Below are positions 24,434-36,281 of a stretch of DNA of 36,870 bases, in pieces. The notes beneath the pieces were generated by a model. It had not been told where the DNA came from. It ran no database searches and saw only the letters and a program-made list of their open reading frames with translations. The stretch's first letter is position 1; each line of letters opens with the position of its first letter. Position numbers and translations under genes: made by a program. This DNA is from Gemmatimonadaceae bacterium (lineage in GTDB: Bacteria > Gemmatimonadota > Gemmatimonadetes > Gemmatimonadales > Gemmatimonadaceae). Location of the stretch: contig JAIETI010000021.1 in the NCBI GenBank assembly GCA_019745365.1, forward strand, positions 1-36,870. Reading direction: 5' to 3'.

Positions 24434-25168
24434 ATGAACCGTCTTTCCCGCACGACCATCGTCAGCCTCGGGGCGCTTGCCGTGTTCGCTTGCTCCGATG
24501 CCCCCCCCCCCCTCGCGACTGATTCGCTCACACAGTCTCACGAGGCCTTGCAGGTCACGGCAACCATGCGCACCGCCGAACGGCTGGCGAGTGCCAGCGC
24601 GCGATCGTTGTCTCTCCCCGCCGCCCGAACCGGCGCCGCGCGAACGCCGCAGGCGGAGCAGATTGAGAAGATCGCGTCCGATGCCGCGCGGGGAGACTCC
24701 GCACTCGCGCCTTTCTTCGCTCGATTCGCGGGGTCGCGGAAGAGTATCGACCGGGTGGCGTCGCACCTCCGCGCGGGCGGGAAGCTACCGACGTATGCGC
24801 TGGTACACGCGTCGCTGACCTCTGCCCCAACGAGCGCTCCGTCGGCAGCTCTGCTTGCGACCGACGGTGGACTCTCTTTCGCCCCGCGCCGGATCGCCCG
24901 CTTGGATCCCGAGTACTGTCAGGCGGTGGCGATCAACATCTATGTGACTACCCTTGCCTACAATGACGCGCGGGACATTTTCGCACAGACCGCTGATGAT
25001 CTCGCGAGCGCCGCTGACGACTACACATCCAACCCATCGCCCTCGAACCTCGCGGATCTGGAGAACGCGGCGTTCAACTACTCTACGGCGGGCCTCGAAG
25101 TCATTATGATCCGGACCGATCTCAACATCATGGCGACGCAATACGCCGCTGGTAACTGCTGGCAGTGA
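24434..25168 (+). CDS. Lipoprotein of unknown function with an 11-C tract
   Basis: 244 residues. The signal MNRLSRTTIVSLGALAVFAC has lipobox AVFAC. Directly after it the codons of SDAPPPLATD contain eleven consecutive C bases (24501-24511). The middle is helical and Ala/Ser/Arg-rich. The C-terminal 80 residues are bounded by two cysteines (EYCQAVAIN and AAGNCWQ), which could form a disulfide. No known family was recognised. A small exported protein follows with a 4-base overlap. Slippage in the C tract would shift the frame right after the signal peptide, so expression could be switchable. Confidence 0.75.
   Translation: MNRLSRTTIVSLGALAVFACSDAPPPLATDSLTQSHEALQVTATMRTAERLASASARSLSLPAARTGAARTPQAEQIEKIASDAARGDSALAPFFARFAGSRKSIDRVASHLRAGGKLPTYALVHASLTSAPTSAPSAALLATDGGLSFAPRRIARLDPEYCQAVAINIYVTTLAYNDARDIFAQTADDLASAADDYTSNPSPSNLADLENAAFNYSTAGLEVIMIRTDLNIMATQYAAGNCWQ
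24501..24511 (+). repeat. Homopolymer tract of 11 C within a lipoprotein gene
   Basis: Eleven C bases in a row at codons 23-27 of the lipoprotein gene. Tracts of this length slip during replication in many bacteria and act as on/off switches. No evidence of variation is available from one sequence. Confidence 0.9.
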
Positions 25169-25581: not shown

Positions 25582-25716
25582 ATGAAGTACCCTAGGCAAC
25601 TCCGGCCAATTCACGGGATCGCCCCCGTCGCGCTCCTCACAGCCTTCGCGATTGTCGTTGCAACCGCTTGGGCCCCCGACCTCCCCGTCAGCGCGCTGCG
25701 CGCGGAATGGGCGCCC
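25582..25716 (+). pseudogene. Out-of-frame N-terminal anchor of the alpha/beta hydrolase
   Basis: ATG 25582 has AAGGA 11 bases upstream and encodes a positively charged start, then the hydrophobic segment IAPVALLTAFAIVVATAW, then PDLPVSALRAEWAP. In related membrane-anchored hydrolases this leads directly into PPSQFRVVDGL. Here that sequence is in another frame, joining at the C run 25714-25717. Adding one C would fuse the two frames cleanly. This is a frameshift mutation or a sequencing error. The window does not tell which. Confidence 0.7.
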
Positions 25717-26540
25717 CGCCCTCGCAGTTTCGCGTGGTCGACGGGCTCGATGCGCACCTCCGCGACGAGGGGCCCCGCGACGACACACTGCCGATCCTGC
25801 TACTCCACGGGACGAGCTCGAGCCTGCACACGTGGGAGTGGTGGACCGCCGACCTCTCGCGGTCTCGACGCGTCATCACCGTCGACATGCCTGGCTTCGG
25901 GCTCACGGGCCCTGATGCACACGATGACTACCGTGCCGCGCGCTACACGCGCTTTGCCGCGGCGCTACTCGACTCGCTCCGCATCGCACGCGCGATCGTC
26001 GGCGGGAACTCCTTCGGTGGCGGCGTGGCGTGGAGTCTCGCGCTCGACCATCCGGCCAAGGTCGCCGCACTCATCCTCGTCGATGCCACCGGGTATCCTA
26101 CACCGAGCGTGTCGGTGCCGATCGGATTCCGACTGGCGCGCAATCGGGTGCTTGCGCCGCTGCTGCGGTCGATCCTGCCGCGCCGCATCGTCCGCTCGAG
26201 CATCGAGAACACCTACGGCGACCCCGCACGCGTCACCGAGCGTCAGGTCGAACGCTATGAGGCGATCACGCGTCGTGCCGGAAACCGCCGCGCACTCTCG
26301 ATCCGATTCTCGCAGGCGAACTACGCCGCCCGAATCGACGAGGTGAGCCGGATCCACGTGCCGACGCTGATCCTCTGGGGCGACCGCGACCGACTCATCC
26401 CCGTCGAGTCCAGTGAGCGCCTCCACACGGCCATCGCGGGGAGCACCCTCGTGCGCTTTCCTTCCCTCGGGCACATCCCGCAGGAAGAGGACCCAGCCGC
26501 GACGCTCGTCCCCGTCCGACGCTTCCTCGGCCTCCCGTAG
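25668..26540 (+). CDS. Alpha/beta hydrolase, body in a shifted frame
   Basis: The frame is open from 25668, but the first about 15 residues are probably not native; conserved sequence starts at PPSQFRVVDGL (about 25716). It has LLLHGTSSSLHTW, the oxyanion region, the nucleophile elbow GGNSFGGG, ILWGDRDRLIP with the acid, and LGHIPQEE with the catalytic histidine. The fold and length match epoxide-hydrolase/esterase-like hydrolases of unknown substrate. Together with the anchor at 25582 it would form a protein of about 320 residues tethered to the inner membrane. Confidence 0.82.
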   Translation: MGPRPPRQRAARGMGAPPSQFRVVDGLDAHLRDEGPRDDTLPILLLHGTSSSLHTWEWWTADLSRSRRVITVDMPGFGLTGPDAHDDYRAARYTRFAAALLDSLRIARAIVGGNSFGGGVAWSLALDHPAKVAALILVDATGYPTPSVSVPIGFRLARNRVLAPLLRSILPRRIVRSSIENTYGDPARVTERQVERYEAITRRAGNRRALSIRFSQANYAARIDEVSRIHVPTLILWGDRDRLIPVESSERLHTAIAGSTLVRFPSLGHIPQEEDPAATLVPVRRFLGLP

Positions 26541-26598
26541 CGCCAACAGCCGAGCCGCGTTGGGCGTAGGTTGGAGTGGACCCTTACCCCTCCACGCG

Positions 26599-28881
26599 AT
26601 GCGCCTCTCTCGCTCCTTCGCACTCGCTCTGCTCGCGCCGCTCGCGCTTACCGCCCAGCAGAAGCCGACCGTCGCGCAGTTCCTCTCCCCCGCCTCCCCG
26701 CTCGAGATCACGACCGCCGCGAAGGCGGATCGGGTCGCGTGGATGGCGTACGACAAGGGACTGCGCAACGTGTACACCGCCGCCGCTCCCGCCTTCAAGC
26801 CGATCCGCGTCACCGCCTTTCTCAAGGACGATGGGACCAACCTCACCGACGTCACGCTTTCTGACGACGGCGCGTTGATCGTCTTCGTGCGCGGCTCCGC
26901 GCCGAACAGCGTGGGGTGGATCGCCAACCCGAACCACTCACCGGACGGCGCGCGTCGCGAGATCTGGGCGGTGAAGTCCGCCGGCGGCGCCGCGTGGCGC
27001 GTGGCCGAGGGGGCCGCACCCGAGCTCTCCCCCGACGGCCGCTGGGTGCTCTATCTGCGCGACGGACAGATCTATCGCGCACCGACAACGATGGGTGCCG
27101 CGAAGAGCGCAATGGATCGCGGTGAGCAGCCGTTCATCAAGGCGTGGGGTCGCCAAGGCACGCCGCGCTGGTCGCCGAACGGTCGCTACATCGCCTTCTC
27201 GAGCGATCGGGAGAATCACGCCTTCATCGCGCTCTACGACGTGGCCGCGCGGTCGCTCGACTACATCGCGCCGAGTGTGGACTGTGATGTGAGCCCGGTG
27301 TGGACCGCCGACTCAAAGCAGATCGCCTTCATCCGGCGGCCAGGCACGCCCTTCGGCGCGCAGGCACAGCAGGGGACGAACGGGATCGGGAATCCGGTGG
27401 GGCCTGCCTTCAATCCGAACAACGCGGCGCAGGCCGCGCGCGCACGCGCGTTCGGCTTCGGCGGCGGCTGCGGTGGTGGCGGCGGATTCGGAGGGGGCGG
27501 TGGCGGCGGGGGCGCCGGGGCGCGTCCGGACACCGTGCGGCGCTCGCCGGGGCTCTATACGGCGACGTTCAGCGGCGGCTACACGACCTCGCTCATGCTC
27601 GCGGATGTCGCCACGAAACAGGCAAAGGAAGTCTGGCATAACGCGCCGGGCGATCGCGTCTTCGCGAACATCAACGGGCTCCGCATGGGTGCTGGGCATG
27701 TCGTGTTCGCACTGAACCGACCAGGCGATGATTGGGATCGGTGGTGGTCGATCCCGCTGGCGGGGAGCAGCGCAGCGCCCACTCTCCTCACCACCACCGA
27801 CGGCCTCATCGAAGGGCCGACCTCGGCGGCGCTCTCGGCGGACGGGCGCACGCTCTACTACACCACCAACGCGACCGACATCGAGCGGCGGCATCTCTGG
27901 GGCGTCCCCGTCGCGGGTGGCACGCCCACACGCATCTCGACGGGGAACGGGATCGAGACGCACCCTGCCCCGCTCGCGAGCGGCACGCAGCTCGCGCATC
28001 TCTACTTCGACGCGAGCACGTCGGCTTCGATCGGGCTCGTCGCGACGAAGGGCGGCGCGCCACGCACGATCTTCCCCACGCTGGGGAAGGAGTTCCCGAA
28101 GAGCGCGCATGTCACGCCGGAGATCGTCTGGACCAAGGCCGCCGACGGCACCTCGGTGAGCAACCAGCTCTTCCTCCCCAAGGACATGAAACCCGGAGAG
28201 AAGCGCCCGGCGCTCGTGTTCGTGCATGGCGGCCCGGTGCGGCAGATGCTTCCCGGCTACCACTACATGCAGTTCTACCACTGGGCGTACGCGGTGAACC
28301 AGTGGCTCGCCGATCAGGGGTACGTCGTCCTCTCGATCAACTACCGCGGCGGTATCGGCTACGGGCGCGCCTTCCAGACTGCGGCGGGCACGAACGCGCG
28401 AGGGAATTCCGAGTATCAGGACGTGCTCGCGGGTGCCAAGTATCTCCAGGGCCGTGCAGATGTCGATGCCACCCGACTCGGCATTTGGGGGCTCTCATAC
28501 GGCGGCCTCCTCACGTCGCAGGCACTCGCTCGCAACTCGGACATCTTCCGCGCGGGCGTCGATCTCGCCGGGGTGCACCTCTATGGCAACTCGCTCGATT
28601 CCACCAATCTCGCGTACCGCTCGTCGGCAATCTCCGCGATCGACGGATGGAAGTCGCCGGTACTGCTCGTGCACGGCGATGATGACCGGAACGTCGATTT
28701 CGCGCAGACCGTGGGGCTCGTCCAGCTCCTCCGCGCGCGCAAGGTCTATCACGAACTCATCGTGGTCCCCGACGATCTGCACGAGTCGATGATCGACAAG
28801 AACTGGATCGACACCTGGAACCAGATGGGGCGCTTCCTCAAACGGTTCGTTTGGGACAAAGAGGCGCCGCCGGCGCCGTGA
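26599..28881 (+). CDS. S9-family (prolyl oligopeptidase-type) peptidase
   Basis: 760 residues from ATG 26599. The signal MRLSRSFALALLAPLALTAQQ suggests export to the periplasm. A beta-propeller of TolB/DPP-like repeats (APELSPDGRWVLYLRDG, TPRWSPNGRYIAFSSD, SPVWTADSKQIAFIRRPG) spans about 80-540. The catalytic domain has S633 in GLSYGG, the acid in HGDDDRN (D694-D696) and H728 in DDLHES. S9 enzymes cleave oligopeptides. A run of about 20 residues that is nearly all glycine (about 288-308) sits inside the propeller. The 3' end overlaps the convergent regulator by 44 bases and is copied at 31601-31759. Confidence 0.9.
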   Translation: MRLSRSFALALLAPLALTAQQKPTVAQFLSPASPLEITTAAKADRVAWMAYDKGLRNVYTAAAPAFKPIRVTAFLKDDGTNLTDVTLSDDGALIVFVRGSAPNSVGWIANPNHSPDGARREIWAVKSAGGAAWRVAEGAAPELSPDGRWVLYLRDGQIYRAPTTMGAAKSAMDRGEQPFIKAWGRQGTPRWSPNGRYIAFSSDRENHAFIALYDVAARSLDYIAPSVDCDVSPVWTADSKQIAFIRRPGTPFGAQAQQGTNGIGNPVGPAFNPNNAAQAARARAFGFGGGCGGGGGFGGGGGGGGAGARPDTVRRSPGLYTATFSGGYTTSLMLADVATKQAKEVWHNAPGDRVFANINGLRMGAGHVVFALNRPGDDWDRWWSIPLAGSSAAPTLLTTTDGLIEGPTSAALSADGRTLYYTTNATDIERRHLWGVPVAGGTPTRISTGNGIETHPAPLASGTQLAHLYFDASTSASIGLVATKGGAPRTIFPTLGKEFPKSAHVTPEIVWTKAADGTSVSNQLFLPKDMKPGEKRPALVFVHGGPVRQMLPGYHYMQFYHWAYAVNQWLADQGYVVLSINYRGGIGYGRAFQTAAGTNARGNSEYQDVLAGAKYLQGRADVDATRLGIWGLSYGGLLTSQALARNSDIFRAGVDLAGVHLYGNSLDSTNLAYRSSAISAIDGWKSPVLLVHGDDDRNVDFAQTVGLVQLLRARKVYHELIVVPDDLHESMIDKNWIDTWNQMGRFLKRFVWDKEAPPAP
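28723..28881 (+). repeat. Duplicated 159-bp peptidase 3' end, intact copy
   Basis: These 159 bases, the final codons of the S9 peptidase, recur at 31601-31759 with 13 mismatches and no gap, about 92 percent identity by hand count. Both copies end convergently inside a paralogous regulator gene. Confidence 0.9.
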
Positions 28882-29638
28882 GGTACAGTTGCTTGGATGC
28901 GATCTGAAAGAGCCGATTCAACTCACGTTCGACGATGTGTGCTGGCTTTTCCGGCTCCTTCGCGCCGCACGCGAGCAGCATCCGTCGGAGCGTTCGCGGC
29001 GTTACGCCCACCAGCCGCGCCGCGTCGCTCCAACTGGTCGCGGCGCCGCGATGGCATGCCGCGCGCAGCACCACCCCCCAGCGCACCAGCGTGCTCAACG
29101 TGGCGAAGGTCCGCTGGGCTTGGAGCCGCCAGCGTCGTTCCATCGCATCTGGTCCGATTCCGAACTGCCGCGCCAGTTCCGATACGGTTGTCACCGCACG
29201 CGGCCGTCGTAGCCCGTCGCTGATAGCGTCGCACAGTCCGCGGTCGCTGCAGCCACGCAAGGCTCGCTGCAGCGAGCGCACCGACCGATCGATCTCGGCC
29301 CGTCGCCGCGACGCGCCAATCGCCTCAACCAGGGTTCGACCCTCGAGTTCATCCACCCAGAGCACCTGCGTGCTTCCGATAGTCGCCGCGCGACGAACCG
29401 ACGCCCGCGAGTCATCAATCAGTGCCAGCCACGCGCAGCTCTTGCGTCCAAACAGCCCCTGTGCGCGTTCCATGCGGTCCGCGGCAAACGCTGATCGGCA
29501 GTCCACGAGCACACAGCGCACCATCCGGTGACTCAGCTCACGCGTGCCATCGACGAAGTGGACTATTTGTGCTCCCCCGCCAACGACTTCGTGAAGTCGC
29601 TCGGCAAGTGCGCTGTCCTCCGAGATCAGAGCGATCAT
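28838..29638 (-). CDS. AraC-type regulator with degenerate receiver-like domain, copy 1
   Basis: 266 residues from ATG 29638 with AGGG 6 bases upstream. Residues 1-115 have the rhythm of a response-regulator receiver (IALISEDSALAERL, VRCVLVDCRS with D46 at the phosphoacceptor position, AWLALIDDSRASVRRAATIG), but the usual switch lysine is absent. Residues 145-240 hold two helix-turn-helix units (TVSELARQFGIGPDAMERRW and SWSDAARLVGVTPRTLRRML), like an AraC DNA-binding domain. The last 14 residues are read antisense through the peptidase 3' end. It follows a small membrane gene by 6 bases. Its paralog is at 31716-32510. Confidence 0.8.
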   Translation of the reverse strand: MIALISEDSALAERLHEVVGGGAQIVHFVDGTRELSHRMVRCVLVDCRSAFAADRMERAQGLFGRKSCAWLALIDDSRASVRRAATIGSTQVLWVDELEGRTLVEAIGASRRRAEIDRSVRSLQRALRGCSDRGLCDAISDGLRRPRAVTTVSELARQFGIGPDAMERRWRLQAQRTFATLSTLVRWGVVLRAACHRGAATSWSDAARLVGVTPRTLRRMLLACGAKEPEKPAHIVERELNRLFQIASKQLYLTAPAAPLCPKRTV

Positions 29639-29644
29639 GGAACC

Positions 29645-29959
29645 CTACATCGGACCCGATGGCGGAGACGCTTCGTCTGAGTGGCGGTCTCGCTGCGCAT
29701 CCTGATGTCGTGCACGCTTGAGACGCCGCTCGAAAACGCTTGTCGCGATTCCGATGGCGTAGAGACTGCCGAGCACTACCCAGCGGAGCAGCCCCGCATC
29801 GAGCGCCCCGAGCGCAACGGGGGCGAAACCCAAGATCAGAAGAAAGCGCAGGTTGTTTAGCGTCTCAACTTGGTCGCGCGCTGCGATGCTCCCCCTCAGT
29901 AGCAGTGCGCCGTAGGCGCACGCGGCCGCTCCAACGTAGACAACCAGTGAATTCACCAT
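29645..29959 (-). CDS. Small three-helix membrane protein
   Basis: 104 residues from ATG 29959. The start is chosen for the near-perfect ribosome-binding site at 29966-29973; the longer frame to 30028 lacks one. Three hydrophobic segments are visible: SLVVYVGAAACAYGALLL, FLLILGFAPVALGALDAG and VVLGSLYAIGIATSVF. A basic, then polar tail (RRLKRARHQDAQRDRHSDE) probably lies in the cytoplasm. No family was recognised. It is 6 bases ahead of regulator copy 1, so the two are probably co-expressed. It may sense or anchor something for the regulator, which is speculation. Confidence 0.68.
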   Translation of the reverse strand: MVNSLVVYVGAAACAYGALLLRGSIAARDQVETLNNLRFLLILGFAPVALGALDAGLLRWVVLGSLYAIGIATSVFERRLKRARHQDAQRDRHSDEASPPSGPM

Positions 29960-29965
29960 TCGCGT

Positions 29966-29973
29966 CCTCCTTT
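29966..29973 (-). promoter_or_regulatory. Ribosome-binding site of the three-helix protein
   Basis: On the minus strand AAAGGAGG, 6 bases before ATG 29959. It is the strongest Shine-Dalgarno match noticed here and decides the start. Confidence 0.7.
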
Positions 29974-30204
29974 CGTTCGAGTGGACCAGCTTTCGTTCCG
30001 CGCTCAGCACGCAACGGCACCTCACCACGCCGCGCTACGCCGCGCCGCGCCGCGCCGCTTGCTTCACCACAACACTGGAGGTGCAGGTACTCTGGTTCTG
30101 CAACTGCACCCCACACGTTTCACCCCGCTCCTAGACACACCAAACCCGTTCGACTGCGTGCCGAGCGACGCGTCGGCACGGCTGGATTGGCGAGTAGTGC
30201 TCAG
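29974..30204. other. Intergenic stretch with GCGCC tandem repeats and an inverted repeat
   Basis: Between the lipoprotein stop and the small membrane gene. It has imperfect 5-base repeats of the GCGCC kind at about 30028-30058 and the inverted repeat GGTGCAG/CTGCACC (30080-30086, 30104-30110) with a 17-base loop. No gene was seen. It may contain a terminator or promoter that separates the two minus-strand genes. Confidence 0.4.
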
Positions 30205-31296
30205 CTATGACGCGTAGCAGTTGATAGCCGAACCAATCCCCCACCCAATCAGGAAGGCGCCAGTAATCAACTTCCCCTGCGTAGATTTGAAGGCGATGCT
30301 CGCTACCCTTGCTCCAAGCCCCTTGAAGCCGGCTGCTTCCTGAATCCAGTAGACGGCACCGCCGACGGCCGCGACAGCGCCGTCGATGCAGTCCTTTCGG
30401 TTCGCGGGCACCGCCGCCTCTTGTAACGCCTCATCGCCGATGCCGCACCCAGGTGCGGGTGCGTCTCCGTAGGCGGCGAACAGGGAAGAGGAAAGCGCCC
30501 CTTGCCCAGCCGTCAGAGGTGAGCCGAGGCTACCAGCTTGCTCTTCCGCGTCGTAGCACGTGCCTCCGCAGAGCGCGCTAAGTTCAGCGACGTCAGCGGA
30601 CAGCTCGGCGCTCAACGCGTCGAGCTCGGCGTGAAAAGCAAGCACCTCCGCCTCATCTGCGCACTCGTCTACGTGCGTCTCGCCTTGCCAGAAGGTTGTA
30701 CAGGTTTCGCTGGACAGGGCGGACAGCACAAACGTGCTCTCGCACTCCGAAGGAACTTCCGAGCCTTCGCGAACCGTCATACATGCCACTCCGTCAGCGC
30801 CGGACGACGATTCTGACGCCGCGCGCACGTCAAACCCTGCCGTGGCGTGGAGGCCTTCAGTTTCGGCACCCATAACGTCCGCTCGCCCGCCCCCACCACG
30901 TCGATCGTGGAACGGTTTCATCACCCTACGATACTCCGCTCGCGTCGGCGCCGCCATCGCCTGAAGAAGCAGACGCCTAAATTCTACGGCCTTCTCTCCG
31001 CGAGGAGAGTGCTTCGCAATCAAGTCGAGCGATCGACTGTACTTGTTCCTCTGCTCGACGCTCAATGGAACGTAGTCGTCGCTCCCGGCGATCGTCTGCG
31101 ATTCAGACCCACGATCGCGCTTCATTGGCGGCTGACCAGCCTGCGGCGGCAATTGCAGTCGAGCTACGACCGGAGCAACGGCATCGGCTTCGTCCGAGCG
31201 CACCGGCGACACGGAGGAATCCGCAGTACACGCTGCCGCAGCCAGCGAACTCAACACAACACACAGCTCGAGCGTCCTTCGCGACGTCCAACGCAT
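30205..31296 (-). CDS. Cysteine-rich lipoprotein of unknown function
   Basis: 363 residues from ATG 31296. The signal MRWTSRRTLELCVVLSSLAAAAC has lipobox AAAAC. A polar helical middle (residues about 70-130) is followed by a cysteine-rich acidic domain with about eight cysteines (among them CMTVREG, CESTF, CTTFW, CADEAE and CGGTCYD). The C-terminal 60 residues run from DCIDGAVAAVGGAVYW to GWGIGSAINCYAS. They are Gly/Ala-rich and hydrophobic, bounded by two cysteines, and recall small membrane-active peptides, but nothing identifies them as such. No ribosome-binding site was seen. No family was recognised. It lies between the two duplicated peptidase/regulator modules. Confidence 0.72.
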   Translation of the reverse strand: MRWTSRRTLELCVVLSSLAAAACTADSSVSPVRSDEADAVAPVVARLQLPPQAGQPPMKRDRGSESQTIAGSDDYVPLSVEQRNKYSRSLDLIAKHSPRGEKAVEFRRLLLQAMAAPTRAEYRRVMKPFHDRRGGGGRADVMGAETEGLHATAGFDVRAASESSSGADGVACMTVREGSEVPSECESTFVLSALSSETCTTFWQGETHVDECADEAEVLAFHAELDALSAELSADVAELSALCGGTCYDAEEQAGSLGSPLTAGQGALSSSLFAAYGDAPAPGCGIGDEALQEAAVPANRKDCIDGAVAAVGGAVYWIQEAAGFKGLGARVASIAFKSTQGKLITGAFLIGWGIGSAINCYAS

Positions 31297-31600
31297 CTAC
31301 GGGTACGCCGAGTTCAGGGTTAAGGGGATGCTCCTCGGGCACGAGGTAGCCCCGAGAGTTGCTGCCGAGAGAAGGCGTTCGGCGTGATACGATACCCCCC
31401 CCCCCCCCCCGCACTCGCACTAGCGCCAATATCCGACCCAACAGCGCCAATTCCCGATCCGCCGACCACGAAGCACTCCGTCGCCCTGCACCATGGTTCC
31501 TCAGCACTTCCGCTCCCTCCGATCCGCGCGTCCGTCTTTCGCGCATCGACGCGTCGCTCTGTGGTAGTACCGCAATAGAGTTGGGCGCGGCGGTGGTACG
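31297..31600. other. Intergenic stretch with a 16-C tract and a possible kinase remnant
   Basis: About 300 bases with no intact gene. It contains the poly-C run 31395-31410 and, at 31542-31560, a short stretch (RIDASL in one frame) like the start of the Ser/Thr kinase at 36467. Any promoter of the lipoprotein must be here. On the minus strand the G run is directly followed by TATCGTAT, a possible -10. Confidence 0.5.
31395..31410 (+). repeat. Homopolymer tract of 16 C
   Basis: Sixteen C bases in a row (G on the minus strand), about 100 bases upstream of the cysteine-rich lipoprotein start. Such a tract in a promoter region could change spacing between promoter elements when it slips. The true length may be uncertain in the assembly. 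Confidence 0.9.
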
Positions 31601-31759
31601 CAGCTCCTCCGCGCCCGCAAGGTCTATCACGAGTTGATCGTGGTCCCCGACGACCTGCACGAGTCGATGATCGACAAGAACTGGATCGATACCTGGAACC
31701 AGATGGGACGCTTCCTCACGCGGTTCGTCTGGGACAAGGAGGCGACGCCGGCGCCCTGA
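31601..31759 (+). pseudogene. Truncated S9 peptidase 3' end (53 codons)
   Basis: A copy of 28723-28881 without indels. Thirteen differences change only two residues (K to T and P to T), and the stop codon is kept. Nothing upstream continues the reading frame, and no start is present, so it cannot make the enzyme. The mostly silent changes imply it was coding, or came from a coding paralog, until shortly before it was cut off. It overlaps the end of regulator copy 2 by 44 bases, exactly as the intact gene overlaps copy 1. Confidence 0.88.
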
Positions 31760-32510
31760 TGCGCGCCTTCTTCGCCGCACGCAGCAGGAATGCTCGTAGT
31801 TCCGTCTCAACTGCGCGCGGTGGTCGGGTCAGATCGTGGATGCCGCACTTCGCGAGTGTACGCTGAAGCGTACGCGGCGACACGCCGACGACCTGCGCGG
31901 CCGCCGACCAACTCGTCGTCGCCCCACGAAGGCAGGCCGCGCGCATCGCCGTTGCCCAGCGTACGACTCCGCTGACACTACGCGGTGTCCTCGTCAGCTG
32001 CCGTCGCCACCTTCGCTCAAGCGTATCTGCGGCGACGCCAAGTCGTCGCGCTAACTGAGCTACGGAGGCTACACTGGCATCGGCCTCCATGGCCACGCAG
32101 ATTGCGTCGCAGAGTGCGCGATCACTGCAGTTCCTGAGGGCGCGTCGAATGACTTGGAGCGCGCGAGAGAGCTCCGCGCGCCGACGCGCCTCGCCGATGA
32201 CACGAATGAACGGCCCGGCTTCTATCTCATCGGACCACAATAGCTGGGCACTCCCCGACGCGGCGGCGCGCCGAGCTGCCTCGCGCGACTCGTCGACAAG
32301 CGCGATCCAAGCCGTCCGATCCACTCGAAAGATCCCTTGAGCGCGTTCGAGGCAGACCTGCGGAAGCGAAGAACGGCAATCCAGCACCACGCATCTCACC
32401 TCACGATAGGCGTTGGCTGGCGCGGTGCCATCGAACCGCATGACCGAGTCGCGCGCACCCGTAGCCAGCCTCGCGGCAAGGGCCGCGTCGAACGAGATTA
32501 GTGCGATCAT
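31716..32510 (-). CDS. AraC-type regulator with degenerate receiver-like domain, copy 2
   Basis: 264 residues from ATG 32510 with GGGGAG upstream. It is a clear paralog of the protein at 28838-29638, roughly half identical by eye. It has MIALISFDAALAARL, VRCVVLDCRS (D44), TAWIALVDESREAARRAA, NCSDRALCDAI, then HTH units SVAQLARRLGVAADTLERRW and SWSAAAQVVGVSPRTLQRTL. It lies 60 bases downstream of the TonB-dependent receptor gene on the same strand, so it may be co-transcribed with it. Its C-terminus is read antisense through the peptidase fragment. Confidence 0.8.
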   Translation of the reverse strand: MIALISFDAALAARLATGARDSVMRFDGTAPANAYREVRCVVLDCRSSLPQVCLERAQGIFRVDRTAWIALVDESREAARRAAASGSAQLLWSDEIEAGPFIRVIGEARRRAELSRALQVIRRALRNCSDRALCDAICVAMEADASVASVAQLARRLGVAADTLERRWRRQLTRTPRSVSGVVRWATAMRAACLRGATTSWSAAAQVVGVSPRTLQRTLAKCGIHDLTRPPRAVETELRAFLLRAAKKARIRAPASPPCPRRTA

Positions 32511-32570: not shown

Positions 32571-35500
32571 CTAGTAGACATACGTTCGCCCGAGCCCGCG
32601 GATCGGCACCGCACTCCGCCAAAGCAGCCCCGCCGGATACGGAAGCAGACGCAGCTGCTCTGGTAGGAGCAGCTCGGCGAGGGTGCGCTGCACATGAAGT
32701 CGACCCTCCTCCCAGGCGGCGTCGATCTCGGCCTGCATATGCTTAATCAACTCGCCCTTCTTGTACGCGTCAGGCTGCTCGGCCAAGAATGCGCCGAGCC
32801 GCGCCCAGCGCGGCTGCAATCGCGTCGTCAACTCGGCACTCGCGCTCGCCAGCGCCCGCAGTTGCGAGGTAGTGAGAAAGAGCGAATCGCTCAGCACGGC
32901 GATCGCTGAATACGGATCGGGGAGCGCACGCGCGTAGCGGCGAGCAAGGTCGGCCGCGGGGAGTCTTGGTTGGCGATCGCCCGCGCGGCCGGGACGGAGG
33001 AACCGATCGATCTGCTGCGACGGGACGGACGCACCGAGTGGGATAGACAGCTCGACACTCACGCGCGCGGTGGAGCGGAACCCGGTCGCCAGTGGTCGCG
33101 TGCTCCCAAACCCCGGATTGACATCGTACAGGAATCGACGGGCGCTCGGGTCGAACGCGCGTACCACGAGCAAGGCAGGGTCGGGTTCGCCGCTTCCGTC
33201 CCAGCCGCGCGGTGCGCCTCGATGAGCGATCGCGTCGATTCCCGCCACGAGATTCTCGATATTGAGCACGACACTCGTGCCGGGACGAGTGCGCCAACGG
33301 CTGAGGTCGAACGCGACCTGCGCATTCGATCCCGTCGTCCACGGTCGCTCGCACTGCTGGCCGACGCCTGCGGCGCGAAGGAGGCGCGCGATGCACGTTC
33401 GAACGTGCGGCTGTGCCTCGGTGCGCAGCACGTCGACCGCTCGTCGCGCGCCGTCGCCCTCGGCCCGAACAATGGCAGAGAGATCAACGAGGTCGTTCAC
33501 GAATCCGTCGCCGTTCACATCGCTATCCACACGCGGAGTGAACGGTTGTCCGGACTCGATGCGCGTGAAGAGCGACGCCGTGATGCCGCGCCCCGATATG
33601 CCCGCCTGCAGCGTAAACTGATGGCGCGCATCGAACGAACCGCGGAGCCACTGCCACCGCGTGGGGTCTCCGAGGGTTCCGCTCTCGAAGCCGCGCTGGC
33701 GCACCGTCGCCGAGCGCCACGAGTAGCCGAGTGTCCACAGCAAGGGCGACCGTCGTTCGCGAAAGTTCGGTTGTAGCAGCAGGTTCACCTGCGCCGCACG
33801 CGAGCGACCGTCTGAGCGGAGTTCCAGTACCCGCCCAAGAGCTCCGACCGTGCGGCTGTCGGCCACCGCGACGCGCCCGCTCCGCGGATCGATCGCGGTC
33901 GGAGCGACGTAGATTGCGCGTGCATCATCGGCGGCGGAGAATACGCGAGTGTCGGCGAAGTTGGCATCGATGAGACTTGGCTGACGCTCGTTCAGTGATC
34001 CGATCGCCTCCACGGTATACGCGATCGACCGAATCCGAGAGGTCCAGGATAGGTTCGACCGCCACGACTGCGGCGCGGAGAAACTGGCTCCCAACACGCG
34101 CGCCTCGCGGAGCGACGAACTGAACGCGGATGCGGTTCCGTCGCGACAGGACAGGGGCGCGGACATCCCGCCGCTCAGATACGCGTCCCAGCTCGGGGAC
34201 GGAACTCGATCACCAAGGCAGACGAGCTCTCGAGGAAGTCGCCCGAGGTCCGAGTCGGCGAAGGTCGCGATCACATCCGACGGCCCGAGCAAGTTGCGAA
34301 ATCGGCCGATACCTCCACGGAGCGCGCCGAACTGCGGAGTAACGAACGAGCCAACTGGTCCGAGCCTCGATGAGGCACCGGTGACGCGCCGTCGAGGGGT
34401 CCACGAGAATCCGAGGCGAGGGCTGACGACGACGCTTCCGTTCACGGAAGCGCCGCCGGCCGACGGCCCTGCAAGGAGCGCGCCTGCGGGCAGGAGTTCC
34501 GCCGTCGGAATTGCCGTCCCTTCGACGCGCAGCCCACCCAATACACTCAAACGCTCAGACACGCGCCAAGAGTCTCCGAGCGATCCGAACCAGTTCAACG
34601 CGGGCAGTCGGCGATCGACCTCGCCCGTGGTTCGTGCAAATCGACTCGGCGCATTCCGACTCCATGCCTCGAGAGAGGGATACTCGAAGGTGCCAGGCGC
34701 GACGAGGCTGGTGCGTTCCCGCGCGTGATCGAGGCGCAACGCGACGCTCCCCTTCAGGCGATGCGCGCTGAGCCCCGGGAAGAAGGTCAGATCGGACATC
34801 GTCTCCCATGTGACCGTCGATGCGCGGCTCTCGTGTGTCCCGCCGCCGAAACCGATCCGCCCCGAACCGTCGGAAAGGCCGTCGCTCGCGGTGGCCCCCA
34901 CGAGGATCGACGCCGCCGGGAGACGTCCTTCCGCATCCGCGCCGCGACGCCGTGCGGCCAGCACGGACCTTGTCTCGACGAGGAAGTACCCCGAGCGCCC
35001 GAGGAACGCGGAATGCTCGAGCGTGAGCGATGCCGCATCACTCCGTTGTCTCCTGGCGGGATCCGCGAACCAGAGGGCGCGCCCCGCCCCGCCGCGCGCT
35101 TGTTCTGCCGATAGGTAGGCAGTGATGTTTAACGTCCGAGTGGAGGGGCGTCGGTTGACGGCGTCATACCAGTCGTGGTCGAGACGAAGCAGGAACACGC
35201 CCCGGTCTCGTCCGATGGTGGCAGCCGGGGGAGCACCCGCGGGAACGACGCCGAGCCCGCGCGCAATTGCGAGCGCACGCGTCAGCGAATCAAGAGACAC
35301 CCCACCCCACACGCGCGGCGAGGTCGCGTCCGCATCGAACGGCTCGCGCGGCGACTCCAACCGCTCAAGCTGCGCACCCCCACTCCATGCCCATCGCTCG
35401 CCGCGAAGCATCCCGCTCCCGGCCGCGGAGAGCAGCTGCTGTCGCTGTTGGGCGCCGCTGAAACGCCCAACGGCGTCGGTTGACTGCGTGACCGCGGGCA

Positions 35501-36281
35501 CGATCGTCGTCCGAGCACTCAGGTCGGTGTAGATGTCGCCGGGGTCGATGGTGATCGCGAGCTGAGCGCCGCTGGCCCAACCGCGCGATGGTTCCCACTG
35601 CGTACCGGAGACCCGCAGTTGCGTGCTCATCCCGCGCGGAATCGCGCCCCCGACAAACGCGACGCCGTTCATGGTCACGTTGTTCTGGCCGGGCCCGAGT
35701 CCCTGGAAGGTGAGCCCGCCATCCGACACGCCGAAGCCCGGAGCCGTCGCCGCGAGCTGCGTGAGGTCTCCCTCACTCGCGGGGGAAAGCGCCGCGCGCA
35801 TCCCGCCGACCAGCTGCGCCGCACTTCCCACTGGCTCAGCAAGTCGGTCCACTGCCGCGTCGCCCCGCTTGGGCCGCCGGCGCTCCGCCGAAACGCGAAC
35901 AGTTGCGAGCTCCTGCGGGGCATCCTCGCGCATCAGCACGAAGTCGGCCCGGAATTCTCCCGAACTGCCAGCCTCATTGAGCCGACGTCGGACGGCGCGG
36001 CGACCGGCAGCACTGACGTGCACCAAGTAGTCGCCGGTTCCGCTGTCGACCACAATGCGCCAGCTCCCCGCAGAGTCAGTTTGGGAGGTATAGAGCTTTC
36101 GGTCCGGCCCGCGGGTCACCGAGACTCGCGCCCCTCGGACGGGCGCTCCATCATCCTGCGTGACACGGCCGCGAAGGACATCGCGCTGCGGGCGCTGCTG
36201 CGCGTCCGTGGAGGCGACCGCGAGGGCAACGGCCGCGACCCGTGCGGCACGGGGCCACGATTGTGCGGTGGTGCTGAACAC
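32571..36281 (-). CDS. TonB-dependent receptor with N-terminal carboxypeptidase-regulatory-like domain
   Basis: 1236 residues. The signal (AARVAAVALAVASTDAQQ) is followed by a carboxypeptidase-regulatory-like domain (VLRGRVTQDDGAPVRGARVSVTR, about 38-115). Then comes a plug-like region (LTQLAATAPGFGVSDGGLTFQGLG, NNVTMNGVAF) and a long outer-membrane beta-barrel with a calcium-like loop DVNGDGFVNDLVD. This is the Oar/SusC-like layout that imports bulky nutrients with TonB energy. The last about 125 residues do not look like a barrel end. They are helical (LTTSQLRALASASAEL, LLPEQLRLLP), like Spy/LTXXQ segments. The ligand is unknown. Confidence 0.87.
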   Translation of the reverse strand: MFSTTAQSWPRAARVAAVALAVASTDAQQRPQRDVLRGRVTQDDGAPVRGARVSVTRGPDRKLYTSQTDSAGSWRIVVDSGTGDYLVHVSAAGRRAVRRRLNEAGSSGEFRADFVLMREDAPQELATVRVSAERRRPKRGDAAVDRLAEPVGSAAQLVGGMRAALSPASEGDLTQLAATAPGFGVSDGGLTFQGLGPGQNNVTMNGVAFVGGAIPRGMSTQLRVSGTQWEPSRGWASGAQLAITIDPGDIYTDLSARTTIVPAVTQSTDAVGRFSGAQQRQQLLSAAGSGMLRGERWAWSGGAQLERLESPREPFDADATSPRVWGGVSLDSLTRALAIARGLGVVPAGAPPAATIGRDRGVFLLRLDHDWYDAVNRRPSTRTLNITAYLSAEQARGGAGRALWFADPARRQRSDAASLTLEHSAFLGRSGYFLVETRSVLAARRRGADAEGRLPAASILVGATASDGLSDGSGRIGFGGGTHESRASTVTWETMSDLTFFPGLSAHRLKGSVALRLDHARERTSLVAPGTFEYPSLEAWSRNAPSRFARTTGEVDRRLPALNWFGSLGDSWRVSERLSVLGGLRVEGTAIPTAELLPAGALLAGPSAGGASVNGSVVVSPRLGFSWTPRRRVTGASSRLGPVGSFVTPQFGALRGGIGRFRNLLGPSDVIATFADSDLGRLPRELVCLGDRVPSPSWDAYLSGGMSAPLSCRDGTASAFSSSLREARVLGASFSAPQSWRSNLSWTSRIRSIAYTVEAIGSLNERQPSLIDANFADTRVFSAADDARAIYVAPTAIDPRSGRVAVADSRTVGALGRVLELRSDGRSRAAQVNLLLQPNFRERRSPLLWTLGYSWRSATVRQRGFESGTLGDPTRWQWLRGSFDARHQFTLQAGISGRGITASLFTRIESGQPFTPRVDSDVNGDGFVNDLVDLSAIVRAEGDGARRAVDVLRTEAQPHVRTCIARLLRAAGVGQQCERPWTTGSNAQVAFDLSRWRTRPGTSVVLNIENLVAGIDAIAHRGAPRGWDGSGEPDPALLVVRAFDPSARRFLYDVNPGFGSTRPLATGFRSTARVSVELSIPLGASVPSQQIDRFLRPGRAGDRQPRLPAADLARRYARALPDPYSAIAVLSDSLFLTTSQLRALASASAELTTRLQPRWARLGAFLAEQPDAYKKGELIKHMQAEIDAAWEEGRLHVQRTLAELLLPEQLRLLPYPAGLLWRSAVPIRGLGRTYVY

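What the first reader, a model, noticed from the sequence alone, without database searches (positions are those of the whole stretch)
28723..32510. Duplicated module: S9 peptidase 3' end plus convergent AraC-like regulator, with cargo between the copies
The last 159 bp of the peptidase gene recur at 31601-31759 (13 mismatches, no indel). Each copy runs into a paralogous regulator with the same 44-bp convergent overlap. Differences in the truncated copy are almost all silent, while the regulators are only about half identical. The second module was therefore probably joined from a diverged relative and not copied recently in place. The lipoprotein and three-helix gene between the copies look like exchanged cargo. 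This may be a recombination hotspot that swaps regulator-plus-cargo units behind a conserved peptidase.
Basis: partly seen in the sequence, partly recalled or inferred. Interest (0 to 1): 0.75.

Follow-up and report, generated by a model that had tools for sequence, protein, structure and literature searches.

The report
Two stacked regulator modules behind peptidase
In a bacterium of the phylum Gemmatimonadota, two related regulator genes with different partner genes sit one behind the other, each attached to the tail end of the same peptidase gene, most likely because DNA from a related strain recombined into the peptidase and pushed the older module downstream; the scar is clear, but no other genome searched shows that this place is a general swapping hotspot.

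Summary
The last 159 bp of an S9 peptidase (28723-28881) recur at 31601-31759 (13 mismatches, no indel, blastn E about 1e-62), and each copy overlaps a convergent paralogous regulator by exactly 44 bp. Nine of the 11 changed codons are silent (dN 0.025, dS 0.39), which neutral decay in place does not give. The regulators are far older (dN 0.48, dS saturated). Best reading: two old, divergent modules (lipoprotein-small protein-regulator 1; TonB-like protein-regulator 2) both end at the peptidase stop codon. A recent import, anchored in the peptidase and joined illegitimately at its other end, stacked them and left a displaced peptidase tail, as in the orphan arrays of Rhs and T6SS loci. The regulators have a pseudo-receiver fold plus an AraC-like double HTH; distant relatives occur in 47 of 394 class genomes. 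The general 'peptidase hotspot' is not supported: none of 74 peptidase-orthologue loci has the regulator or a remnant, and 9 of 10 sister-genus loci lack any such island; the tenth has a different TonB/AraC island on the peptidase's other side. No same-genus genome was available, and a 16-C run between the modules leaves an assembly caveat.

The parts
26599..28881 (+). Intact S9 (prolyl-oligopeptidase-type) peptidase with a beta-propeller N-terminal part and signal peptide; its 3' end is the anchor
   Evidence: Pfam Peptidase_S9 5e-34, PD40; orthologues 52-69% in many Gemmatimonadota and some Acidobacteriota
28723..28881 (+). Repeat copy 1: last 159 bp of the intact peptidase gene
28838..29638 (-). 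Regulator 1: pseudo-receiver plus AraC-like double HTH, 266 aa; last gene of a minus-strand gene set; 44-bp convergent overlap with the peptidase
   Evidence: AlphaFold2 pLDDT 82, receiver-like (beta-alpha)5 then AraC-like helices, residues 259-266 (within the overlap-encoded tail) unstructured; Foldseek FixJ, AmiR, receiver domains
29645..30028 (-). Small hydrophobic protein (127 aa as called), 6 bp upstream of regulator 1
   Evidence: no Pfam family; only one weak relative in the class
30205..31296 (-). Lipoprotein, 363 aa, Cys-containing middle and hydrophobic Gly-rich C-terminal end; no family
   Evidence: one weak relative in 393 other genomes; single-sequence model uninformative, pLDDT 40
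31297..31600 (.). Non-coding joint between the modules, with a run of 16 C at 31395-31410
   Evidence: sequence, homopolymer scan
31601..31759 (+). Repeat copy 2: displaced 3' end of a peptidase gene (remnant), sharp left edge at 31601
31716..32510 (-). Regulator 2, 264 aa, paralogue of regulator 1, same 44-bp overlap with the remnant; 60 bp downstream of the TonB-like gene
32571..36281 (-). CarboxypepD_reg plus outer-membrane beta-barrel (TonB-receptor-like) protein, 1236 aa; cargo of module 2
   Evidence: Pfam PF13620 4.8e-11, PF25183 9.4e-6, the latter under the curated cut-off; relatives at 30-36% in 171 of 179 family genomes

Best explanation
Two divergent modules of one kind, each a minus-strand gene set ending in a pseudo-receiver/AraC-like regulator that faces the 3' end of the same S9 peptidase, have been stacked in tandem. 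The shared 44-bp overlap and equal tail length suggest that the peptidase-regulator junction was already in place before the two regulators diverged (inferred). The regulators then behaved as old alternative versions of one locus, while the peptidase side stayed similar by ordinary homologous recombination between related strains, which must stop where homology stops, at the stop codon (inferred). Recently a fragment carrying peptidase tail plus one module entered by homologous exchange inside the peptidase and by an illegitimate joint at its far end. This left the resident peptidase tail (159 bp) and its regulator-TonB module displaced downstream (inferred; the scar itself is shown). Each regulator probably controls its own operon of surface proteins; because the receiver lacks the usual lysine and most of its acidic pocket, it probably works without phosphorylation (inferred from sequence and fold).
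For: Tail identity 92%, ending at the stop codon in both copies. dN/dS 0.06 for the tails, and only silent changes outside the overlap. Regulators saturated, dS 2.1, dN 0.48, against peptidase dS about 1.0, dN about 0.28 between genera: so tails look younger, and regulators older, than the genus split. Same overlap and same 41-residue stretch from second HTH to stop in both regulators. Low third-position GC (0.68-0.76) across 28.8-36.3 kb against mostly 0.81-0.93 for the neighbouring genes, fitting acquired DNA. Nine of 10 sister-genus loci lack such an island. Precedent for the mechanism: PMC5361080, PMC3240628.
Against: No strain with only one module has been seen, so neither parent is known. 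The direction (which module arrived last) cannot be told. A slower synonymous rate in the peptidase than in the regulators would weaken the age contrast, and dS for the regulators is beyond the useful range of the method. The run of 16 C between the modules could mark a faulty assembly joint.
Confidence: 0.6

Rival explanations
1. Old duplication in place of peptidase tail plus regulator, followed by divergence of the regulators, with gene conversion from the intact peptidase keeping the truncated tail similar.
For: The junction is identical in both copies; both copies are in one genome and close together.
Against: Differences that arise in a truncated copy should mostly change amino acids: about 9 expected, 2 seen, 0 of 4000 simulations. 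It needs conversion followed by replacement of the intact tail from elsewhere, which is the import model again.
Confidence: 0.13
2. Integrative element with its attachment site in the peptidase 3' end: integration duplicates the gene end and leaves a displaced copy, with regulator 1, the small protein and the lipoprotein as element cargo.
For: Gene-end target, restored 3' end and displaced copy downstream are the classical anatomy of such elements (general knowledge).
Against: No integrase, recombinase or excisionase among the genes in 28.8-36.3 kb (only weak HTH matches); 2.7 kb of cargo only; a second copy of the regulator lies outside the would-be element; the two ends are 8% diverged with silent changes, where att cores are normally near-identical; no relative in phage or plasmid records.
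Confidence: 0.07
3. Assembly chimera: two strains or two loci were joined at the run of 16 C, so the modules are not truly in tandem.
For: C16 at 31395-31410 lies between the modules; of the other runs of 14 or more C in this genome, those in contigs 17 and 86 lie within about 130 bp of a contig end, so such runs may trouble this draft assembly.
Against: The remnant starts at 31601, 190 bp beyond the run, so a truncated peptidase tail in front of regulator 2 exists whatever happened at the run; low third-position GC is seen on both sides of it.
Confidence: 0.12
4. Species-level recombination hotspot: many strains carry different regulator-plus-cargo modules behind this peptidase. This is an extension of the best explanation, not exclusive with it.
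For: Two divergent modules in one genome; a separate low-GC3 TonB-DsbA-Cys peptide-AraC island beside the same peptidase in one sister-genus genome.
Against: 0 of 74 orthologue loci with regulator or remnant; 9 of 10 sister-genus loci without an island. TonB-like genes are numerous, so one island beside this peptidase among ten genomes is not surprising (my rough estimate about 0.14). The sister-genus regulator shows no detectable relation to the two here.
Confidence: 0.15

Closest known systems
Displaced effector-immunity arrays in T6SS clusters of Vibrio cholerae (PMC5361080), explained by homology-facilitated illegitimate recombination
   Same: A conserved upstream stretch serves as anchor; the new module sits next to the anchor; the old module is pushed downstream with a leftover 3' end of the displaced gene
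   Different: Here the units are regulator plus surface-protein operons and no toxin-immunity pair is recognised; only one displacement is seen; the anchor is a peptidase gene and the module is convergent to it
Rhs/CDI loci with orphan C-terminal modules (discussed in PMC5361080)
   Same: Conserved core, variable downstream module, displaced orphan copies
   Different: No toxin domain or immunity gene found; the variable part is not fused to the core gene
AraC-type and FixJ/AmiR-type response regulators
   Same: Receiver-like N-terminal domain and AraC-like pair of HTH in the predicted fold; best Foldseek matches FixJ and AmiR
   Different: No Pfam receiver match and AraC HTH only sub-threshold; no histidine kinase gene beside it; receiver active-site residues largely missing
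Integrative elements that target gene 3' ends
   Same: Gene-end repeat flanking cargo
   Different: No integrase; repeat copies 8% diverged with silent changes

Membership tests
Displaced-module array formed by homology-facilitated illegitimate recombination | Truncated copy of the conserved anchor gene in front of the displaced module | tested here: met
   159-bp peptidase tail at 31601-31759 abutting regulator 2
Displaced-module array formed by homology-facilitated illegitimate recombination | Modules are diverged homologues, anchor copies close to each other | tested here: met
   Regulators 49% identical, tails 92% with dN/dS 0.06
Displaced-module array formed by homology-facilitated illegitimate recombination | Related strains show single modules or other modules at the same place | not testable with these tools
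   No other same-genus genome held; more distant genomes lack the module
Displaced-module array formed by homology-facilitated illegitimate recombination | Illegitimate joint at the far end of the import | tested here: inconclusive
   Sharp edge at 31600/31601, but no parental sequence to compare
Polymorphic toxin/immunity (Rhs, CDI, T6SS) | Toxin domain and cognate immunity gene in the module | tested here: not met
   No such family in Pfam, NCBIfam or PHROGs for the module genes
Integrative element in a gene 3' end | Integrase/recombinase gene between the repeats | tested here: not met
   Three genes between the repeats, none a recombinase
AraC-type regulators | Tandem HTH in a seven-helix arrangement | tested here: met
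   Predicted helices 133-249, block pLDDT 76-94 over most of the HTH part; Pfam HTH_18 only 6.8e-4 in regulator 2, under its cut-off
Phosphorylation-dependent response regulators | Receiver domain with acidic pair, phospho-Asp and conserved Lys | tested here: not met
   (beta-alpha)5 fold predicted and an Asp at the end of strand 3 in both copies, but Asp in place of the Lys and no Pfam receiver match; distant relatives lose the Asp too

The most novel reading that the evidence does not exclude
An exchange locus outside the known toxin systems: in natural populations of this Gemmatimonadota genus, strains carry one of many ancient, highly divergent regulator-plus-surface-protein modules behind a conserved secreted peptidase, exchanged by recombination in the peptidase, with displaced older modules kept in arrays.
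Probability: 0.15. Interest if true: 0.7.

Novelty: new variant of a known kind. Interest (0 to 1): 0.4.

Why it matters
Stacked modules with a leftover anchor gene end are known from toxin-immunity loci, where selection for diversity drives them. The same scar at a regulator/surface-protein locus of an almost uncultured phylum suggests that surface-protein operons with their own regulators may also exist as old interchangeable versions. It also shows that the age of a flank and the age of the cassette beside it can be told apart from a single genome. The claim is directly testable with strain-level data.

Tried and rejected
Close relatives of the regulators by degenerate-pattern scan of genome contigs and viral contigs: none. 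Plasmids and phages by tblastn: none. Pfam, NCBIfam, PHROGs for the cargo: no family for the lipoprotein or the small protein. Shared operator between the two operons: longest common stretches no longer than in shuffled sequence. RNA families near the joint: none; the only tRNA in the window is at 910-994. Structure of the lipoprotein: uninformative. Lower GC3 of genes adjacent to the distant regulator homologues: trend only, p 0.08. Association of the regulator family with S9 peptidases: 3 of about 20 loci have some S9 gene within about 6 kb, which I judge to be near chance for genomes rich in S9 genes, and none abuts convergently.

Full report
Setting. The window is one contig (36,870 bp) of a 2.83-Mb draft genome in 193 contigs. 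The closest peptidase relatives are Gemmatimonadaceae. The first 24 kb carry housekeeping-type genes with mostly high third-position GC (GC3 about 0.8-0.93). From the peptidase stop codon to 36.3 kb GC3 falls to 0.68-0.76 and returns to 0.83 in a protein-kinase gene that runs off the contig end.

The last 159 bp of the S9 peptidase recur at 31601-31759 with 13 mismatches and no indel; the genome has no third copy. The identity stops at the peptidase stop codon in both places. Regulator 1 (28838-29638) and regulator 2 (31716-32510), 48-50% identical, each run 44 bp into their peptidase copy from the other strand.

Operon anatomy. Each regulator is the last gene of a minus-strand set: lipoprotein, small protein (6 bp gap), regulator 1; and TonB-receptor-like protein (60 bp gap), regulator 2. 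So the unit next to the peptidase is probably a whole operon with its regulator at the peptidase side, and the TonB-like gene belongs to module 2.

Ages. The 13 differences fall in 11 codons and change two amino acids, both inside the 44-bp overlap. Random placement of 13 changes gives about 9 amino-acid changes and never 2 or fewer in 4000 trials per setting. The tails have dN 0.025 and dS 0.39. The same peptidase compared with the syntenic sister genus has dN about 0.28 and dS about 1.0. The regulators have dN 0.48 and saturated dS. The tails therefore seem to have parted well after the genus split, under selection for a working peptidase, while the regulators parted much earlier. Both regulators have the same number of residues from second HTH to stop and end at the same base of the peptidase, so the junction is probably older than the regulators' divergence (inference). 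The two facts fit together if the regulators are old alternative versions at one locus and the peptidase flank is kept similar by recombination, which cannot pass the stop codon because homology ends there (inference).

How the tandem arose. One homologous exchange inside the peptidase and one illegitimate joint at 31600/31601 would place the incoming module next to the intact gene and leave the resident tail and module downstream. Kirchberger et al. (PMC5361080) proposed this for T6SS effector-immunity arrays, and note the same idea for Rhs. The mechanism has been described in several bacteria but is rare (PMC3240628; PMC5361080). No integrase lies among the genes between the copies.

What the regulators are. 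Sequence libraries give only weak HTH matches. AlphaFold2 with 20 sequences predicts a (beta-alpha)5 receiver-like domain and an AraC-like pair of HTH, pLDDT 82; the last 8 residues, inside the overlap-encoded tail, are unstructured. Foldseek's best matches are FixJ, AmiR and receiver domains. An Asp is kept at the end of strand 3 but the usual Lys is Asp, so phosphorylation control is unlikely (inference). Distant relatives occur in 47 of 394 class genomes. Some of them lie next to small Cys-rich exported proteins, 6-bladed beta-propeller proteins, lipoproteins or TonB-like genes. A third, distant member lies in the same genome (contig 77) and overlaps a convergent ABC-transporter gene by 17 bp.

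Is it a hotspot? Of 74 loci with peptidase orthologues (52-69% identity), none holds a regulator relative or a repeated peptidase tail within the sequence held, up to 10 kb downstream. In the sister genus with the same upstream order, nine of ten loci have no island of this kind on either side. One (G322; locus L093/L206) has a low-GC3 island of TonB-like protein, DsbA-like thioredoxin, Cys-rich small protein and an AraC-HTH regulator between the BadF-type ATPase gene and the peptidase, that is, on the other side. That regulator is not detectably related to the two in the window. Given how common such TonB-like genes are (about 20 first-look candidates per genome), one such neighbour in ten genomes is not striking (my estimate about 0.14). 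No other genome of the same genus is held, so exchange within the species remains open.

Caveat. A run of 16 C at 31395-31410 lies between the modules; similar runs in this draft are found near contig ends. A faulty joint there would separate the modules, but the truncated tail beside regulator 2 would stay.

Verdict. A well-supported recombination scar that stacked two divergent regulator-operon modules behind one peptidase; the wider hotspot claim is not supported at genus level and is untested below it.

Noticed in passing
window 31395-31410: Run of 16 C about 100 bp upstream of the lipoprotein gene (poly-G on its strand): a possible phase-variable promoter tract, or an assembly artefact.
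   Followed up: partly
window 24501-24512: Run of 12 C inside the lipoprotein gene 24434-25168, directly after the probable lipobox cysteine: a typical place for a phase-variable contingency tract.
   Followed up: no
L093 / L206 (G322 contig 88), about 2.8-9.9 kb of L206: Low-GC3 island with TonB-like protein, DsbA-like thioredoxin, Cys-rich small exported protein and AraC-HTH regulator inserted between a BadF-type ATPase gene and the same S9 peptidase; absent from 9 genus-mates.
   Followed up: yes
G000 contig 77, 744-1457 (L056): Third, distant member of the regulator family in the same genome; its 3' end overlaps a convergent ABC-transporter ATPase gene by 17 bp.
   Followed up: partly
L073, 6840-8384 (G158): Regulator-family member followed by two small exported Cys-containing peptides, lipoproteins and a TonB-like gene, all of low GC3: looks like a recurrent Gemmatimonadota peptide/propeller/TonB cluster without a described family.
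   Followed up: partly
L207, about 3.7-10.6 kb (G013): TonB-like gene in a low-GC3 cluster with a receiver-like small regulator, a small exported protein, a lipoprotein and what looks like a dedicated signal peptidase I: similar cluster logic to L073 (names from reading the translations only).
   Followed up: no
window 25668-28881: An alpha/beta hydrolase gene lies directly upstream of the S9 peptidase, as also in L086, L090 and L126, but not in the sister genus.
   Followed up: no
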